Shown piece after piece: positions 3,296 to 43,308 of a stretch of 64,000 nucleotides of DNA. Location of the stretch: NCBI GenBank assembly GCA_005110385.1, contig DUDT01000013.1, forward strand, positions 1 through 64,000, given 5' to 3'. Made by a program: the position numbers and the translations under genes. The notes under the pieces are model-generated. The model was given only the letters and a program-made list of their open reading frames with translations. It ran no database searches and was not told where the DNA came from. Each line of letters opens with the position of its first letter. Positions within the stretch are counted from its first letter, which is position 1. The stretch is from Candidatus Melainabacteria bacterium. Lineage in GTDB: Bacteria; Cyanobacteriota; Vampirovibrionia; LMEP-6097.

Positions 3296-4905
3296 TCAAT
3301 TAAGCAAATTCGCTTCTGATAAGACTTCTAGACTTGTGGCGAAACCTCCTATCGGTATTAATTGATTGCTATTCATTGGAGTAACTATTGGCCTTAAATA
3401 CGAACCATTAAATATAGAAGTACATTTAAGTGTCAACTTCGAAGGAAGATCTCTTACTGCGTTCGCAGTATCAAAATTTCTATAGTGAAAACTTTGCTGT
3501 ATCTCTTGATTCAATAATTCACCGTTATTATAACTTAAGGGATTCTTATCAAAAGCCCTACGTATATTTCCTTGACAAGATGCTAGTAATAAAATACTTT
3601 TAAACAATTTTTTCTGATCTATAAATATTTGGTGAACTGGATCAAATTCATTGTCATTAGATGGTTTATCAAGATATTTAATAATTGCTGCTGTATTACC
3701 AAAAACAATAATTAAGAATTCAAACAATAATTTTGAACCATAAAGTCTCTCAATATCTCGAAAATTAATAATTTTATCTGCAATAGCACGCTCTAAAAAT
3801 GTAGATAAAAATCCTTTCAGAAGATTGAAGAGTGTATAGTTAAGATCAATGTTTTGACCACTATGTAAAATATAGATATCAATACCTTTATTCACTTTAT
3901 GGAAACATTCTAAAACACGATTCAACTTATTTTTAATAGTATTTTGGTTACTAAATTCAAAAATAGCCTTCGAGCAAAACTTATCAATATACCCATTAAA
4001 ATCTGTCTCCAAGCCATATTTATGATGAAAAATGCTTTGGATATTATCAATGTCGCAAACAAAAATCACTCTGTCAAATCCATATCTATCTGCAAGTTTT
4101 TTTCTTCCTCAGAATTAATATCTCTTTCACTCATCAGGTCCTCATCATGAGCGGAAACTCCAATCTCTGCATTTTCGTCATCCTCAGAATCCTGTAAGTG
4201 TGCACTAAAAATATTTAATAATCTAAAGATATGCCCTAGATCCATCCTGTCGAAATCATCTATAACTAAAACTAATTTTTCCTCTTTATTCTTTTCTTTT
4301 ATTCGCTCTGTTGCATTCTTAATAAAACGAGTTGCAGTATCTTCATGAAGCTTTTGCGCGGCTTCAATCTCTTTCAAGAAACTTCGGACATGCTCTTCTG
4401 GAGTAGGTTCCGTATTCTGTTCTTTAGGATCTTTTTCACTTAGCTCGATAAAATTATTTATTATTTGAGATATTTCAAGGTCTAGTGATGCCTCTAAACC
4501 AAAATTTAATCATATATTAACCGTTACTCCTCTCGTTAATTTGCTTGTGAGTTTCAGTAGTTTTTTCAAAACACCTTGCTCATTATTTCTTAAAGCTTTA
4601 AATTTATCCACAATACGCTTATAATCAGCAAGGATAACTTTTCCTTTAGGGAGTATCTTTAAAAGACTTCTCAGTAAATCAAATTTTACTAACTCAAAAA
4701 TATCTTCATTAGCACAGACTTGATAATTTACTGGATATAGGAATACTGCTTCATAAGGATCTGAGTCTTTCTTAAAAAACTTTTCAGAAAATAGGTTTTA
4801 CCAGCCCCAAACTTAGCAGAAAAAATCATTCTATGATTGTCTTCTAAATCAATAAAGCTTTTAAATATTGGACTTACCTCTTTTCGCTGCGTCCATGTTT
4901 TTACC
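3296..4905 (-). pseudogene. KAP-family P-loop NTPase, broken by frameshifts and a stop
   Basis: Pieces of one KAP-like ATPase can be read in order on the minus strand: Walker A SAKFGAGKT near 4800-4825; then YEAVFLYPVNYQVCANEDIF; Walker B KLVLVIDDFDRMD near 4255; then RVIFVCDIDNI, HHKYG and YIDKFCSKAIFEF (4069 to about 3960) running to a stop at 3296. The frame is lost near 4785 (one base missing after KTYFL), by TGA at 4510-4512, and by one base near 4068, after an element-derived insert (SEDDENAEIGVS). KAP NTPases are membrane-associated ATPases often linked to mobile elements and defence. The three lesions point to decay or to assembly error. The N-terminus is not certain. Confidence 0.75.
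4146..4188 (-). repeat. Partial palindromic element in the KAP NTPase relic
   Basis: The minus strand reads GATGACGAAAATGCAGAGAT, then TGGAGTTTCCGC, encoding DDENAEIGVS. This is the right half of the element in the usual coding frame, located between Walker B and the segment after it. Slightly diverged (ATCTCTGCATT instead of ATTTCTGCGTT), so probably older. Confidence 0.7.
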
Positions 4906-7768: not shown

Positions 7769-8656
7769 TTACAGATCATCGTTTATTATAAGTTTAGTTC
7801 TCTTACCAAGAACCTGCGCTTTCCTGTATTTAACATAGGAATTACCGAAACGATTTAATGCATCTACTTTTAATTTAATAGCTTCAGCCTCACCTTCAGC
7901 TCTCGTGATAACAGCATCTCTATCATTCTGCTTTTCAATAATAATATTATCCTTAGTATCCAATTCGATTCTTGCACGCTGCTTTTCTTCAATTGCACTC
8001 TGGTAAGCCTGAGAAAAAGTAACCTCATCTAAAAGGAATTCCGTAAGTACAATTTTATACTTTGCTAAATGCTTTTCTAATGCTTTAGAAATTTTATCAG
8101 CGATAACTCTTCTATCCTCACTATAAATAGCAGAAACAGTATAGCCTGCGATAACCTCTCTGACCATACTTCTGACGATTGGGTTAATTACTTTATTTAC
8201 ATATGAATTATAACTATCATTACCTATCTGCTGATGCACCCACCACAGCTGTTTAAAATCTGGTCTTGCCCTTACAGTAACGTCTACTGAAATATTCTGT
8301 CCATCAGAAGTTAAAGTATCTATAGAGTTACCAAGTATCTTGGCTCCATTTTTAGAACGCTCTGCTGAATTACTAAATATATAGCTAATCTCTCTTACGT
8401 TGTAGATAGTCGTCTGCTGCAGTATCGGTATTACGAACTGAATCCCTTCTTCTAGTACCCTCTGTTCCATACCTATAACTCGATTAAAAATCACAGCTCT
8501 CTGACCGGCGCCGACTAAAATAACCAGATTAGGTACTACAAAAAAAAGCCCAATAATAATAAAAATTTTGATTTTATGCTTAGCAAGGAAATCATCTGGA
8601 TCAAAGCGATTAGAATTATTTGAGCCGAAAAAGTCTGAAAAGTTGGGACTACTCAT
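7769..8656 (-). CDS. SPFH/prohibitin-family membrane protein (HflK-like)
   Basis: 295 residues from ATG 8656 (MSSPNFSDFFG). An upstream start at 8677 in the same frame is possible but lies across the TATTAT box at 8668-8673. A membrane helix at about 31-50 (IKIFIIIGLFFVVPNLVILV) is followed by a Band 7 domain (GAGQRAVIFNRVIGMEQRVL) and a C-terminal charged helix with AEGEAEAIKLK, a signature of the family. Likely forms a hetero-oligomeric membrane ring with the downstream SPFH protein. Divergent from gapA, with overlapping control regions. Confidence 0.85.
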   Translation of the reverse strand: MSSPNFSDFFGSNNSNRFDPDDFLAKHKIKIFIIIGLFFVVPNLVILVGAGQRAVIFNRVIGMEQRVLEEGIQFVIPILQQTTIYNVREISYIFSNSAERSKNGAKILGNSIDTLTSDGQNISVDVTVRARPDFKQLWWVHQQIGNDSYNSYVNKVINPIVRSMVREVIAGYTVSAIYSEDRRVIADKISKALEKHLAKYKIVLTEFLLDEVTFSQAYQSAIEEKQRARIELDTKDNIIIEKQNDRDAVITRAEGEAEAIKLKVDALNRFGNSYVKYRKAQVLGKRTKLIINDDL

Positions 8657-11185: not shown

Positions 11186-12094
11186 TTGATCCCAATTAAC
11201 ACCTTCTATCTAATCAGCATTATCGGCTGCCTCTGGGTCGCCTACGATTTCGTACGTAAAATATTACTGAAAAGAATAAAACCCTTACCTTTAGTCATTT
11301 TCCTGGAATTTGGTCAAGCAGTAATTTATCTCAGCTACGGCTATCTCTCTCAGCAACTAATTTATAGTCATGGATATATTTTCCCAGGCTTGATGACTGC
11401 TGGCTTCGCCTCACTAGGAACTTTCCTGCTAACTAAAGCCATCTCTATTTCGCCACTCAGCAGTGTCATTCCTTTCCTTTCTTTCCTGCCTTTTTTCACG
11501 GTAATATTCGGCAGCTTGATATTAAAGGAAAACCTTTCTCAGATTCAATTTTCAGGATTAATCCTTTTAGTTTTAGCCTCTTTTATAATTAATTATCAGG
11601 GTAAAAAAGTAAACTCTATTCTAGGATTATTTAAAACCCTCTACCAAGATCTCACTCACGAAAAGGGCTGCGTCCTAGTTATTATTACTTCTCTTCTCTG
11701 GGCTTTCGCTATACCCTTTGATAAGCTTGCTATGCAAGCTACGAACCCGATCTCTCACGCTCTTTATCACGCACTACTCTGCGGAACTATATTTAGCATA
11801 GCTCGTTTTTTTTCGAAGACCTGTCCTTGGGGCGATACTAAATTTTTCGCAGTAGAGTTGCAAGGCACCTACTGGTTTCTATTATTAGGTATAATAAACG
11901 CTTCATTTGCCATGGTGTTACAGTTTATGGCTTATCAAATTTCTTACATAGGTTTAGTGGAAGCTGGTAAGCGAGCAGTTTCCCTAGTCTCTAATTTATT
12001 TATCGGTGCTTTGATTTTTAAAGAGCCTGTAAATAAATTTAAATTTTTAGGCACTCTGCTAATTTTAATAGCTACTATTTTGATTTTAAATTAA
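11186..12094 (+). CDS. EamA/DMT-family transporter
   Basis: 302 residues with about ten hydrophobic segments and a two-fold internal repeat, typical of EamA drug/metabolite exporters. The end of the first half carries the family pattern PLSSVIPFLSFLPFFTVIFG and GSLILKENLSQIQFSGLILL; the second half matches it with GALIFKEPVNKFKFLGTLLI. The start used is TTG 11186 (IPINTFYLISIIGCLW is already the first helix); no Shine-Dalgarno is obvious. Substrate unknown. The DUF3748 gene follows 19 bp downstream, so they may be co-transcribed. Confidence 0.8.
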   Translation: MIPINTFYLISIIGCLWVAYDFVRKILLKRIKPLPLVIFLEFGQAVIYLSYGYLSQQLIYSHGYIFPGLMTAGFASLGTFLLTKAISISPLSSVIPFLSFLPFFTVIFGSLILKENLSQIQFSGLILLVLASFIINYQGKKVNSILGLFKTLYQDLTHEKGCVLVIITSLLWAFAIPFDKLAMQATNPISHALYHALLCGTIFSIARFFSKTCPWGDTKFFAVELQGTYWFLLLGIINASFAMVLQFMAYQISYIGLVEAGKRAVSLVSNLFIGALIFKEPVNKFKFLGTLLILIATILILN

Positions 12095-13682: not shown

Positions 13683-14553
13683 CTCTAAACCAAGTCATCT
13701 GCCTCTTTGCATACCTTCTAGTTCTTAACTGTATTTGGTTTATAGCTTCATCTAGACTTAGAATCCCTGAAAGATAATCAGCGACCTCTCTATAACCGAT
13801 AGTGCTATCTATAGCCTTTACTCTGCCGTATTTATTAATTAAAGCCTTAACTTCATCAACCAAACCACACGTTATCATACGTAAAACCCTTGCATTGATT
13901 AGATCATAAAGATCTTCTCGCCTCTTAAAATCTAAACCTACGTAGAGAGAATCATAGCGAGGTTCTTGGCTTTTAGTTCTCAGCTCACTTAAAGGCTTTC
14001 CAGTCTTAATAACTAACTCTAAAGCTCTAATCACCCGTACTTTATTCTGAATATCTATTAAGGCTAAAGCACCTGAATCCTTTTCTTGAAGCATTAATAA
14101 CAGCTCGTCTAAAGATTTTTGATTAAGCTCATCTCTTAAAGCTTGATTAGTATTCACTGCAGGCATTTTTAAATTTTCTAAAGCAGCTTTAATATATAGA
14201 CCAGTACCACCCACTACTATAATTTTCCTTTCTAAATCTAGATTCCATATGTTTTTGACTACATTATCAAAATCTTTTTGATAATCACCAGCCGAATAAG
14301 CTTCTGTCATCGATTTAAGATTTAGCAAATGATGCCTTACTTTACTCAATTCATCTGAAGAAGGCTTAGCCGTACCTATATCCATTTCCTTAAAAATTAG
14401 GCGACTATCAGCATTAATAATCTCTGTCTTAAATTTTCCTGCAAGCTCTATAGCTATATCAGTTTTCCCAGTACAGGTAGGTCCAACAATTGTAATTAGC
14501 TTTTTTGAGCTAGTATCAATATAATTTAGAATTGAGTCTGTAATTAATGCCAT
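13651..14553 (-). CDS. miaA: tRNA dimethylallyltransferase
   Basis: Adds dimethylallyl to A37 of tRNAs reading UNN codons. 300 residues, usual length. Walker A-like GPTCTGKTDIA (24-34), NADSRLIFKEMDIGTAKPS (about 47-65), VVGGTGLYIKAAL (about 114-126) and the C-terminal RTRRYAKRQMTWFR are all characteristic. GGGAGG lies 11 nt before the ATG. The start is head-to-head with the 7TM-HD gene: ATG and CAT share the 7-bp sequence ATGCCAT. The 3' end overlaps the DUF3748 gene. Confidence 0.96.
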   Translation of the reverse strand: MALITDSILNYIDTSSKKLITIVGPTCTGKTDIAIELAGKFKTEIINADSRLIFKEMDIGTAKPSSDELSKVRHHLLNLKSMTEAYSAGDYQKDFDNVVKNIWNLDLERKIIVVGGTGLYIKAALENLKMPAVNTNQALRDELNQKSLDELLLMLQEKDSGALALIDIQNKVRVIRALELVIKTGKPLSELRTKSQEPRYDSLYVGLDFKRREDLYDLINARVLRMITCGLVDEVKALINKYGRVKAIDSTIGYREVADYLSGILSLDEAINQIQLRTRRYAKRQMTWFRANPEIRWFYR

Positions 14554-39381: not shown

Positions 39382-40302
39382 ATGATTAATTTCGGCTCAC
39401 TAATTACAGCAATGGTAACTCCCTTTAAGGAAGATGATATTAATCGCATAGATTATATCGCTGCTGAAAACATAATCGCACACTTAGTAAAGACTGGTAC
39501 TGATTCGATAATCATCTCTGGTACTACTGGTGAAAGACCGACGCTCACGCATCAAGAGGAAGAAGATTTTCTTGATTTCACTTTAAAAAAAGTAAAGGAA
39601 CTTAATCAAGGCACTAGAGTTATCTTCGGAGCTGGTTCTAACTGTACAAGAACAGCTATTCACTCTGCTAAACGAGCAGAGGAGCTTGGCGCAGATGGCA
39701 TACTACTCGTAGTACCTTATTACAATAAGCCTAACCAAGAGGGTCTTATTAAACATTTTAACGAAATATCCTCTAGCACTTCTTTGCCCATTATTCTTTA
39801 TAATGTTCCAGCAAGGTCAGTAGTGAGCCTCACCGCAGAATCAATTATTGAATTAGTTTCTAATAATCCTAATATCGTTGCACTGAAGGAAGCTAGCAGT
39901 AATTTCGATTTAATCAGCACTATAAGACAGAAGTTTTCTTCTAACGCTTTAAAGATTTATTCAGGTGAAGACACTTTAATTTTACCGATGATGAGCATAG
40001 GCGCAGATGGCATTATATCCGTCTGTTCGCATGTAGTCGGCAAGCAGATGAAAGATATGATACTAGCTTTCCAAAGCGGGAATAATGAACTAGCTAAGCG
40101 AATTCATTTAAGAATTTTCCCTGTAATGAAAGCGATATTCTCAGATACTAATCCGATTGGCATTAAAGCTGCATTAGCTGGCATAGAGCTGTGTTCAGCA
40201 GAGTTAAGAAGCCCGATGGTTTCTTTACCTAAAGAAAAACAGCTCGAGTATAGTAAATTAATTAAAGAAGTTTTAGAAGTAGCAGAGGCAGATTTAGTCT
40301 GA
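39382..40302 (+). CDS. dapA: 4-hydroxy-tetrahydrodipicolinate synthase
   Basis: Condenses aspartate semialdehyde with pyruvate, the first lysine/DAP step. 306 residues, TIM barrel. SGTTGERPTLTHQEEEDF (about 44-61), ILYNVPARS (about 136-144) and the Schiff-base lysine in VALKEASSN (about 164-172) are all present. Its stop TGA overlaps a CTG in the next gene frame (CTGA), which may be how RNase J is started. Confidence 0.95.
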   Translation: MINFGSLITAMVTPFKEDDINRIDYIAAENIIAHLVKTGTDSIIISGTTGERPTLTHQEEEDFLDFTLKKVKELNQGTRVIFGAGSNCTRTAIHSAKRAEELGADGILLVVPYYNKPNQEGLIKHFNEISSSTSLPIILYNVPARSVVSLTAESIIELVSNNPNIVALKEASSNFDLISTIRQKFSSNALKIYSGEDTLILPMMSIGADGIISVCSHVVGKQMKDMILAFQSGNNELAKRIHLRIFPVMKAIFSDTNPIGIKAALAGIELCSAELRSPMVSLPKEKQLEYSKLIKEVLEVAEADLV

Positions 40303-42131
40303 GTAAAATAACCAACCAAACAAGAAGAATTCTTAAATCTAGCAGCGGTGAAATCAAGACCGTTACTAAGACGATTAAGCACGACTCTAGTCAAATAACT
40401 TATGATCCAAGCAAAAAAGTAAAAGTAATTGCCCTTGGTGGTTTATTTGAAATCGGAAAAAATACTTGGATCTTTGAATGTGGTGACGATATTATGCTTG
40501 TCGATGCTGGACTCGCCTTCCCGACAGCAAGCATGATAGGAGTAGATATAGTACTTCCTAAAATTAATTATTTAGTCGCTAACAAAGATCGCATCAGAGG
40601 CATGATAGTGACCCATGGTCATGAAGATCATATTGGCGGTATAGTACCGATGCTTAGGGAAATTAATATTCCGATTATTTATGCACCTGGTCTAGCTTAT
40701 GCTTTAATTCAAAGTAAACTCAAAGAAGCGAATATACTACACCAAAAGATGGTCTGGACTAAAGCTAGAGATAGAGTACAGATTGGTCAACATTTTTCAG
40801 TTCAATATATAAGAAATAATCATAGTATCGCAGATAGCTACTGCCTAATCATCGATACACCAGCAGGCAGAATCGTACATAGTGGTGATTTTAAATTCGA
40901 CCACAGCCCAGTAGAGAACCAGTATTTCGACATTCGCAGCTTAGCTGCGGCTGGAGAGTCTGGCGTAGACCTGCTTATAAGCGATAGCACCAATGCAGAA
41001 AGAGCTGGCTATACACCATCAGAAAAAGCTGTTATACCTAAGCTTAAAGAAATGATCTTTAATTCTAAAAAGAAATTATTTATCACGACCTTTGCAAGCC
41101 AAGTAAGTCGTGTGAAAATCGTCTTACAGCTTGCTCTGCAAGCTAATAAGAAAGTAACCATATTTGGTAGATCGATGGTTAACCTCGCTAATATCTCTAA
41201 GGAACTGGGTTTCATTTCCATACCTGATAATTTCATAATCAAGCAAGAAGAAGTTAATAAAATCCCTCCAGAAGATCTAGTTATCTTGACGACAGGCAGT
41301 CAGGGAGAGCAGTTCGCAGCCCTTTCTCGTATCGCCCGTAATGAGCATAAATACGTAAAAATACAAGCTGGAGATCAAGTGCTGATAAGTGCTTCACCCA
41401 TACCAGGTAATGAAAAATCTGTTAACCATCTAATAGATAGTTTATTTGCTCGCGGTGCTGATGTTATCTATGGACTAGGCCAAACTATTCATGTCTCTGG
41501 CCACGCTAGCCAAGAAGAACAGAAAATGCTTTTAAATCTCTGCAAACCAGTTAACTTTATGCCTTGTCACGGTGAATATCGAATGCTGCTTAAGCATGGT
41601 GAAACTGGGATGAAATGCGGAGTTAATCCAGACAATATTTTCGTACTTGACAACGGCGATATTCTTGAGATGCAGGATGGTAAATGTTCTATTAAAGAGA
41701 GAGTCGATTCTGGTATAGTTCTGGTCGATAACGACAATGTCGGCAGGCTGGATGAGGACATCATCCTAGAAAGAAAAATGATCTTAAGTGATGGTTTTAT
41801 ATTAATCGTTGTTAACATTAACGCTTACGGTCAGTACAGCGCTGAGCCTAAATTAAATACCAAGGGTATACTGCTACCGCTTGGTTTTAATGAAAAAAGC
41901 TTTAAAAAAGAACTGATCAGCTTAACTCACGAAGCACTTGAAAGCATTATAGATAAAGAAAAGCCATCTTCTATAGACAATTTAGATAAGTTTTCACTAA
42001 AACTACAGAGCATTATTTCTTCTAAAATTTATAATTTCCTTGATAATAGAACTCGTAGATATCCACTGCTTGAAGTTGTGGTTTTAGGTAATCATGGTGC
42101 GGTAAAACCCGTAGTCGCTGGTTTAAACTAG
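40299..42131 (+). CDS. rnj: Ribonuclease J, probable non-AUG start
   Basis: MBL/beta-CASP ribonuclease for mRNA turnover and rRNA maturation. THGHEDHIGG, HSGDFKFDHSP, DSTNAERAGYT, TTGSQGEQFAAL and HVSGHASQEEQ identify it. The first ATG (40494) lies after VKVIALGGLFEIGKNTWIFE, the conserved first strands that every RNase J has, so it cannot be the true start. Upstream to the in-frame stop at 40263 there is no ATG, GTG or TTG. CTG 40299 overlaps the dapA stop (CTGA) and has AGAGG 10 nt before it, giving 610 residues; ATT 40329 is another option. Function sure, start inferred. Confidence 0.9.
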   Translation: MSKITNQTRRILKSSSGEIKTVTKTIKHDSSQITYDPSKKVKVIALGGLFEIGKNTWIFECGDDIMLVDAGLAFPTASMIGVDIVLPKINYLVANKDRIRGMIVTHGHEDHIGGIVPMLREINIPIIYAPGLAYALIQSKLKEANILHQKMVWTKARDRVQIGQHFSVQYIRNNHSIADSYCLIIDTPAGRIVHSGDFKFDHSPVENQYFDIRSLAAAGESGVDLLISDSTNAERAGYTPSEKAVIPKLKEMIFNSKKKLFITTFASQVSRVKIVLQLALQANKKVTIFGRSMVNLANISKELGFISIPDNFIIKQEEVNKIPPEDLVILTTGSQGEQFAALSRIARNEHKYVKIQAGDQVLISASPIPGNEKSVNHLIDSLFARGADVIYGLGQTIHVSGHASQEEQKMLLNLCKPVNFMPCHGEYRMLLKHGETGMKCGVNPDNIFVLDNGDILEMQDGKCSIKERVDSGIVLVDNDNVGRLDEDIILERKMILSDGFILIVVNINAYGQYSAEPKLNTKGILLPLGFNEKSFKKELISLTHEALESIIDKEKPSSIDNLDKFSLKLQSIISSKIYNFLDNRTRRYPLLEVVVLGNHGAVKPVVAGLN

Positions 42132-42270: not shown

Positions 42271-43308
42271 ATGCCTGTAGCTAACTATAAACAATACGTT
42301 GAAATGCTCGATAGAGCTAAAAAAGATAAATACGCATATCCTGCGGTAAATATAACTTCACTTGCCACTATCAGTGCGACTTTAAAAGCTTTTGCTGATG
42401 CTAAGTCTGATGGTATCATCCAAGTTTCCACTGGTGGAGCTGAATTCGCTTCAGGTCTAGCACAAAAAAATATGGTTTTAGGAGCAACAGTGCTTGCTGA
42501 AGCTATTCATACTTTAGCTGAAAAATATGATATTTTAGTCGCTATCCACACTGACCACTGTCAGCCAGGGAAAGTAGATTCTTTCTTAAAGCCACTTATC
42601 GCAAAAACAGCAGAGAGAAGGGCTAAAGGCTTACCTAATCTATTTAACTCTCATATGTTTGATGGTTCTGAACTTTCGACTAAAGAGAACATCGCTATCG
42701 CTAAAGAACTTATTAAACTCTGTAACGATAACGAAATTATTTTAGAAGTAGAAACTGGTGTAGTCGGCGGCGAAGAAGATGGAGTGGATAACTCTGGTCA
42801 TTCTAATGAAAAGCTTTATACGACACCAGAAGACATGCTTTACGTTTGGGAAGAATTAAGCCCGATTAACGAAAGATTTATGCTAGCTGCTACTTTCGGA
42901 AACGTGCATGGTGTCTATAAACCAGGTAACGTAAAACTTACACCTAGCATCCTTAAAGAAGGTCAGGCTGCGGTTAAAGCTAAATTTGGGAAAGAACACC
43001 TATTAGTATTTCATGGTGGCTCTGGTTCTGATTTAAGTGATATTCACGAAACTTTAGAATATGGCGTTATTAAAATGAACATAGACACTGATACTCAGTA
43101 TGCTTTCACTAGACCTATAGTGGAGCATATGTTTAAAAACTATGATGGCGTTCTTAAAATCGAAGGCGAAGTAGGTAATAAAAAAGTTTATGATCCAAGA
43201 TCTTACTTGAAGAAAGCTGAAGAAGGCATGGCTGCGAGAATTAGCCAAGCTTGTGCAGATCTTAAATCTTCTGGTAAATCAATTTATAAATCTTTAGTTA
43301 CGGCTTAG
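42271..43308 (+). CDS. fba: Class II fructose-bisphosphate aldolase
   Basis: Zinc aldolase of glycolysis/gluconeogenesis. 345 residues, type A (yeast/E. coli FbaA-like). Zinc ligands in AIHTDHCQPGKVDSFLKP, then SHMFDGSELSTKENIAIAKE, EVETGVVGGEEDGVDNSG, FGNVHGVYKPGNVKL, VFHGGSGSD and VIKMNIDTDTQYAFTRP are diagnostic. GAGGAG 8 nt before ATG, an ordinary Shine-Dalgarno, in contrast to gapA. An 11-bp inverted repeat follows at 43334-43375. Confidence 0.97.
   Translation: MPVANYKQYVEMLDRAKKDKYAYPAVNITSLATISATLKAFADAKSDGIIQVSTGGAEFASGLAQKNMVLGATVLAEAIHTLAEKYDILVAIHTDHCQPGKVDSFLKPLIAKTAERRAKGLPNLFNSHMFDGSELSTKENIAIAKELIKLCNDNEIILEVETGVVGGEEDGVDNSGHSNEKLYTTPEDMLYVWEELSPINERFMLAATFGNVHGVYKPGNVKLTPSILKEGQAAVKAKFGKEHLLVFHGGSGSDLSDIHETLEYGVIKMNIDTDTQYAFTRPIVEHMFKNYDGVLKIEGEVGNKKVYDPRSYLKKAEEGMAARISQACADLKSSGKSIYKSLVTA

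What the first reader, a model, noticed from the sequence alone, without database searches (positions are those of the whole stretch)
40299..40496. RNase J has no canonical start codon for its conserved N-terminus
The frame encoding VKVIALGGLFEIGKN, essential to the MBL fold, is open back to 40266 but has no ATG, GTG or TTG before 40494. A CTG overlaps the dapA stop (CTGA) with AGAGG 10 nt upstream. Likely a CTG start with translational coupling, or another non-AUG codon (ATT 40329), which could hold down synthesis of a global RNase.
Basis: partly seen in the sequence, partly recalled or inferred. Interest (0 to 1): 0.7.

Follow-up and report, generated by a model that had tools for sequence, protein, structure and literature searches.

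The report
RNase J gene starting with CTG
In a genus of non-photosynthetic cyanobacteria (Candidatus Caenarcaniphilales) the gene for the RNA-degrading enzyme RNase J begins, in three independent genomes, at a CTG codon tucked into the stop codon of the gene before it, where the nearest other genus has an ordinary ATG; such starts are very rare and usually keep a protein scarce.

Summary
The RNase J frame (40266-42131) has no ATG, GTG or TTG before 40494, and CTG 40299-40301 overlaps the dapA stop by 4 nt (CTGA), with AGAGG 10 nt upstream. Two other species of the genus (REEB446, RE-15aug16-7; about 93% DNA identity over dapA-rnj) carry the identical junction, so it is not a sequencing error. 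The nearest other genus has ATG exactly where this one has CTG, and the following residues match (LSKITNQTRRILKSSSGE / MSKLTNQTRRILKSSSGE), with differences mostly at third codon positions. This places the start at the CTG and excludes ATT 40329 and ATG 40494. In that genus dapA and rnj lie 58 nt apart; here they overlap, so a deletion probably created the junction. The geometry is the known -4 overlap of termination-reinitiation, but coupling and low RNase J output are inferred, not shown. Beyond the finding: in this genus scpA (ATT), lptB (ATA), a deaminase-like gene (ATC/ATT) and infC (ATT) also lack canonical starts; scpA and lptB have canonical starts in other genera. The CTG may be one case of a wider near-cognate-start habit, 4 of about 230 genes checked. 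A new, well-supported member of a known rare kind.

The parts
40299..42131 (+). rnj, RNase J, 610 aa, inferred CTG start, stop TAG
   Evidence: TIGR00649 544.7 bits against cut-off 400; aligns with solved RNase J1 6k6s and 3zq4; ATG at the aligned position in G006
40299..40301 (+). CTG start codon of rnj
   Evidence: identical in three species
40299..40302 (+). CTGA, 4-nt stop/start overlap of dapA and rnj
40284..40288 (+). AGAGG, Shine-Dalgarno-like, 10 nt before CTG (inside dapA)
   Evidence: GAGG matched to the 16S 3' end
39382..40302 (+). dapA, 4-hydroxy-tetrahydrodipicolinate synthase
   Evidence: TIGR00674 310.6 bits; dapA lies just upstream of rnj in 29 of 30 class loci, the other being at a contig end
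38327..39349 (+). asd, aspartate-semialdehyde dehydrogenase, upstream gene of the run
42271..43308 (+). fructose-bisphosphate aldolase-like gene downstream; its position after rnj is conserved in the family
   Evidence: positional conservation; name from reading the sequence, not from a family search
40246..40344 (+). 99-nt stretch identical in all three genus members, spanning the junction; the longest in dapA-rnj
   Evidence: 32 invariant codons, permutation P 0.004
40494..40496 (+). first canonical start triplet (ATG) in the rnj frame; rejected as start

Best explanation
rnj is translated from CTG 40299, read by the ordinary initiator tRNA as formyl-methionine, giving (M)SKITNQTRRILKSSSGE... 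Shown by comparison: the position of the start and its persistence in three species. Inferred: ribosomes finishing dapA at the overlapping TGA reinitiate on the CTG with help from GAGG 10 nt upstream; the codon is weak, so RNase J is made at a small fraction of DapA and is sensitive to IF3. Inferred: the overlap arose when about 55-60 nt of spacer still present in the sister genus was lost, followed by, or together with, the change of ATG (or TTG) to CTG.
For: The same CTGAGTAAAATAACC junction, without any ATG/GTG/TTG, in G001 and G002 at about 92.6% and 93.4% DNA identity. ATG at the aligned codon in G006, with codons 2-21 differing at 4/0/11 first/second/third positions. No match in the rnj frame upstream of CTG between the genera. 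All solved RNase J align from about residue 30-41 of this frame, well before ATG 40494 at residue 66. Other family genera have ATG near the aligned position. The 4-nt overlap is the commonest coupled arrangement (PMC10666635). In E. coli a GAGG 9 nt upstream raised reinitiation more than threefold and extra IF3 lowered reinitiation about threefold (PMC2268962). CUG gives 0.86% of AUG output and makes up 0.024% of bacterial initiation codons (figures quoted in PMC11497404). The start region is less structured than shuffled sequence, z +1.35. Initiator tRNA anticodon stem (GGG-CTCATAA-CCC) and an IF3 gene are present.
Against: No protein or ribosome data exist. Coupling and output are not measured. 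SD-like matches of 4 nt occur at 14% of random coding positions in this genome, so GAGG alone is weak. ATA 40308, three codons downstream, can hardly be separated from CTG by comparison alone, though it has no SD-like match and the G006 ATG aligns with CTG.
Confidence: 0.85

Rival explanations
1. The CTG start is real but has no regulatory role: it is a tolerated by-product of a deletion, in a genus that generally accepts near-cognate starts. RNase J level is simply what the coupled ribosomes provide. (This rival concerns the purpose of the CTG, not its use, so its confidence is not exclusive of the main explanation.)
For: Other genes of the genus also lack canonical starts: scpA ATT, lptB ATA, deaminase-like ATC/ATT. 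The spacer of the sister genus is missing here.
Against: The junction is unchanged in three species, within the longest invariant stretch of the two genes. Any change of the C at 40299 would restore ATG, GTG or TTG and be silent in dapA (GTC to GTA, GTG or GTT, all Val; from the sequence), so keeping C suggests it is not simply neutral. With only three related species this is weak.
Confidence: 0.4
2. Another near-cognate codon downstream (ATA 40308, ATT 40329 or ATC 40353) is the real start.
For: They are in frame and of start-capable type.
Against: Codons 2-21 after CTG are conserved as protein with G006, which needs translation from CTG or within about three codons of it; no SD-like match before ATA 40308 or ATT 40329.
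Confidence: 0.07
3. RNase J is made as a DapA fusion by -1 frameshifting before the dapA stop.
For: The frames overlap for about 36 nt before the stop.
Against: No X XXY YYZ slippery heptamer in the overlap; in G006 the genes are separated by 58 nt, with a TAG at the end of dapA.
Confidence: 0.03
4. Sequencing or assembly error at position 40299.
For: One base separates CTG from ATG.
Against: Same base in three separate assemblies of three species.
Confidence: 0.01
5. A short protein starting at ATG 40494 is the product.
For: It is the first canonical start.
Against: It would drop the first strands of the metallo-beta-lactamase fold that all solved RNase J contain and 65 residues that are 82% identical to G006.
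Confidence: 0.02

Closest known systems
infC (IF3) with AUU/AUC/AUA start, autoregulated by IF3 (E. coli, Streptomyces, S. aureus; PMC5472188, PMC13009471)
   Same: Conserved near-cognate start that limits translation; this genus also has an infC without a canonical start, ATT being the likely start
   Different: rnj uses CTG, overlaps an upstream stop codon, and no autoregulation is known
E. coli pcnB with AUU start (Binns and Masters 2002, cited in PMC13009471)
   Same: A gene of RNA metabolism kept low by an inefficient start codon
   Different: Poly(A) polymerase rather than RNase J; AUU rather than CTG
Streptomyces sigR with GTC start, repressed by IF3 (PMC5472188)
   Same: Rare non-canonical start conserved only within one genus, canonical in relatives; part of a coupled gene pair
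   Different: In sigR the odd start is on the upstream gene of the coupled pair; here it is on the downstream gene
ATGA-type 4-nt overlaps with termination-reinitiation (PMC10666635, PMC2268962)
   Same: Same 4-nt geometry
   Different: C in place of A, so the weakest of the four NTG starts is used

Membership tests
RNase J family (TIGR00649) | Score above curated cut-off over the full profile | tested here: met
   544.7 bits, cut-off 400, profile 1-541 of 546
RNase J family (TIGR00649) | Metal-binding HxHxDH motif | tested here: met
   THGHEDHIGG in the translation
Genes with near-cognate (non ATG/GTG/TTG) start | Conserved coding sequence begins at a near-cognate codon with no canonical start available | tested here: met
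Genes with near-cognate (non ATG/GTG/TTG) start | The codon is kept between species | tested here: met
   three species of the genus; ATG in the sister genus
Genes with near-cognate start repressed by IF3 | Output rises when IF3 discrimination is impaired | not testable with these tools
   needs an experiment
Termination-reinitiation gene pairs | 4-nt or 1-nt overlap | tested here: met
   CTGA 40299-40302
Termination-reinitiation gene pairs | Translation of the second gene depends on the first | not testable with these tools
   needs a reporter

The most novel reading that the evidence does not exclude
This genus of Caenarcaniphilales uses near-cognate start codons (CTG, ATT, ATC, ATA) in an unusually large share of genes, about 4 of some 230 tested plus infC. 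These form an IF3-sensitive set that includes the global nuclease RNase J, a chromosome condensation protein (ScpA) and an LPS-export-type ATPase (LptB), so that the level of IF3 would tune all of them together.
Probability: 0.25. Interest if true: 0.75.

Novelty: new member of a known kind. Interest (0 to 1): 0.5.

Why it matters
Gene finders usually assume ATG, GTG or TTG, so this RNase J would be called 65 residues short and lacking part of its catalytic fold. A CTG start kept between species in a central RNA-decay enzyme is a clean natural case for asking how such starts are used, whether overlap with a stop codon rescues a poor start, and whether some lineages tolerate near-cognate starts far more than E. 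coli.

Tried and rejected
Sequencing error (three assemblies agree); ATT 40329 and ATG 40494 as start (conserved residues upstream); frameshift fusion (no slippery site, separate genes in G006); an RNA structure at the start (folds worse than shuffles); a promoter or terminator at the junction (consensus matches fewer than in shuffles); an altered initiator tRNA (the anticodon stem is normal). In the orthologue scan several apparent cases were set aside: open frames lying on rRNA, antisense shadows, a truncated ATPase gene (L112) and L078:1378, where no convincing start was seen. For scpA, lptB and the deaminase-like gene the exact start codon was chosen partly by its SD-like motif, so SD presence there is not independent evidence.

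Full report
What is there. The window belongs to a genus of Candidatus Caenarcaniphilales (Cyanobacteriota; relatives named). RNase J lies in a run asd-dapA-rnj-aldolase. Its frame is open from 40266 to 42131, and the first ATG/GTG/TTG is ATG 40494. CTG 40299-40301 lies on the dapA stop (4-nt overlap CTGA), and AGAGG stands ten bases upstream. The 16S gene ends in CCTCC.

Where translation begins. Nine genomes of the family were searched. The two other members of the genus, G001 (REEB446) and G002 (RE-15aug16-7), differ from the window at about 7% of bases over dapA-rnj, yet have the same CTGAGTAAAATAACC and no canonical start. In the nearest other genus, G006, an ATG stands exactly at the CTG. 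From the next codon on the proteins match (SKITNQTRRILKSSSGE against SKLTNQTRRILKSSSGE), and codons 2-21 differ at 4, 0 and 11 first, second and third positions. Upstream of the CTG the frames do not match. The start is therefore the CTG or within about three codons of it. A start at 40494 would cut off part of the fold present in all solved RNase J.

How it arose. dapA lies just upstream of rnj in 29 of the 30 loci examined; the remaining locus ends before it. G006 has 58 bases between dapA and rnj; both genera share AGATTTAGT at the dapA end, and the spacer after it is missing here. Loss of the spacer, with a change of the first base of the start codon, gives the present junction. The order of events is not known, and G006 is a relative, not the ancestor.

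How it probably works (inferred). The 4-nt overlap is the commonest geometry for termination-reinitiation, and reinitiation falls off steeply with distance (PMC10666635). In an E. coli coupled reporter a GAGG nine bases upstream raised reinitiation more than threefold, and extra IF3 lowered it about threefold (PMC2268962). CUG is reported to give 0.86% of AUG output and to make up 0.024% of bacterial initiation codons (PMC11497404). IF3 represses such starts, as in infC and sigR (PMC5472188). Non-canonical AUU/AUA starts gave about 10% of AUG output in S. aureus reporters, rising to 30% in one case (PMC13009471). A coupled but weak start would thus give RNase J at a small, IF3-sensitive fraction of DapA. 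The 99 bases 40246-40344 are identical in all three species, the longest such stretch of the two genes (permutation P 0.004 on codons; uneven mutation rates are not controlled). Any change of the C at 40299 would restore a canonical start and be silent in dapA (GTC, Val), so its persistence hints at selection, though three related species are few. No stable RNA structure is predicted there.

Wider pattern. Open frames of 849 kb of this genome were compared with 1.46 Mb of G006 (257 pairs). Besides rnj, three genes have conserved N-termini without a canonical start: scpA (AGAGGA then ATT), lptB (TAAGG then ATA) and a deaminase-like gene (GAGGA then ATC). G001 has ATT in scpA, ATA in lptB and ATT in the deaminase-like gene. 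scpA and lptB have canonical starts in the other genera. infC has no canonical start in G000, G001 and G006, as is known in other bacteria. That is 4 near-cognate against 227 canonical starts in this sample. G006 has one such case in the sample (L050, likely ATA). The initiator tRNA stem is normal. There is no matched control from another lineage, so an excess is suggested, not proven.

Verdict. Coupling, low output and IF3 control are plausible and testable. The kind is known but rare; the RNase J case and the cluster of near-cognate starts in one genus were not met in the papers searched, which is a limited search of open-access text.

Noticed in passing
L070, - strand open frame at 7885 (reverse-complement coordinates); G001 L165: scpA has no canonical start before its conserved N-terminus; AGAGGA followed by ATT in both species; TTG or ATG in other genera.
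   Followed up: partly
L070, - strand open frame at 14480 (reverse-complement coordinates); G001 L172: lptB lacks a canonical start; TAAGG, 8 nt, ATA in G000; ATA kept in G001; canonical starts available in all other genera.
   Followed up: partly
L114 about 11555 (+); G001 L191: Cytidine-deaminase-like gene (name from motifs, no NCBIfam match) with ATC start here and ATT in G001, GAGGA kept upstream.
   Followed up: partly
L182, L183, L184 (infC): infC has no canonical start in G000, G001 and G006; likely ATT (G000, G001) and ATC (G006), as known from other bacteria.
   Followed up: partly
L050, - strand open frame at 11186 (reverse-complement coordinates), genome G006: Glutamine-amidotransferase-like gene of the sister genus seems to start at ATA after AGGGGGA; ATG in the window's genome.
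   Followed up: no
L182/L183 IF3 C-terminus (MTGKSMIIF): IF3 of this genus has K where the other family members have R (MTGRS and similar); from memory this may correspond to E. coli R168. Only a lead.
   Followed up: no
G000 whole genome: Only one RNase J found, while G001 and most relatives that have RNase J carry two; the genome is 88.5% complete, so absence is not certain.
   Followed up: no
L112, - strand open frame at 4069 (reverse-complement coordinates): ATPase gene seems truncated by an upstream stop compared with G006.
   Followed up: no
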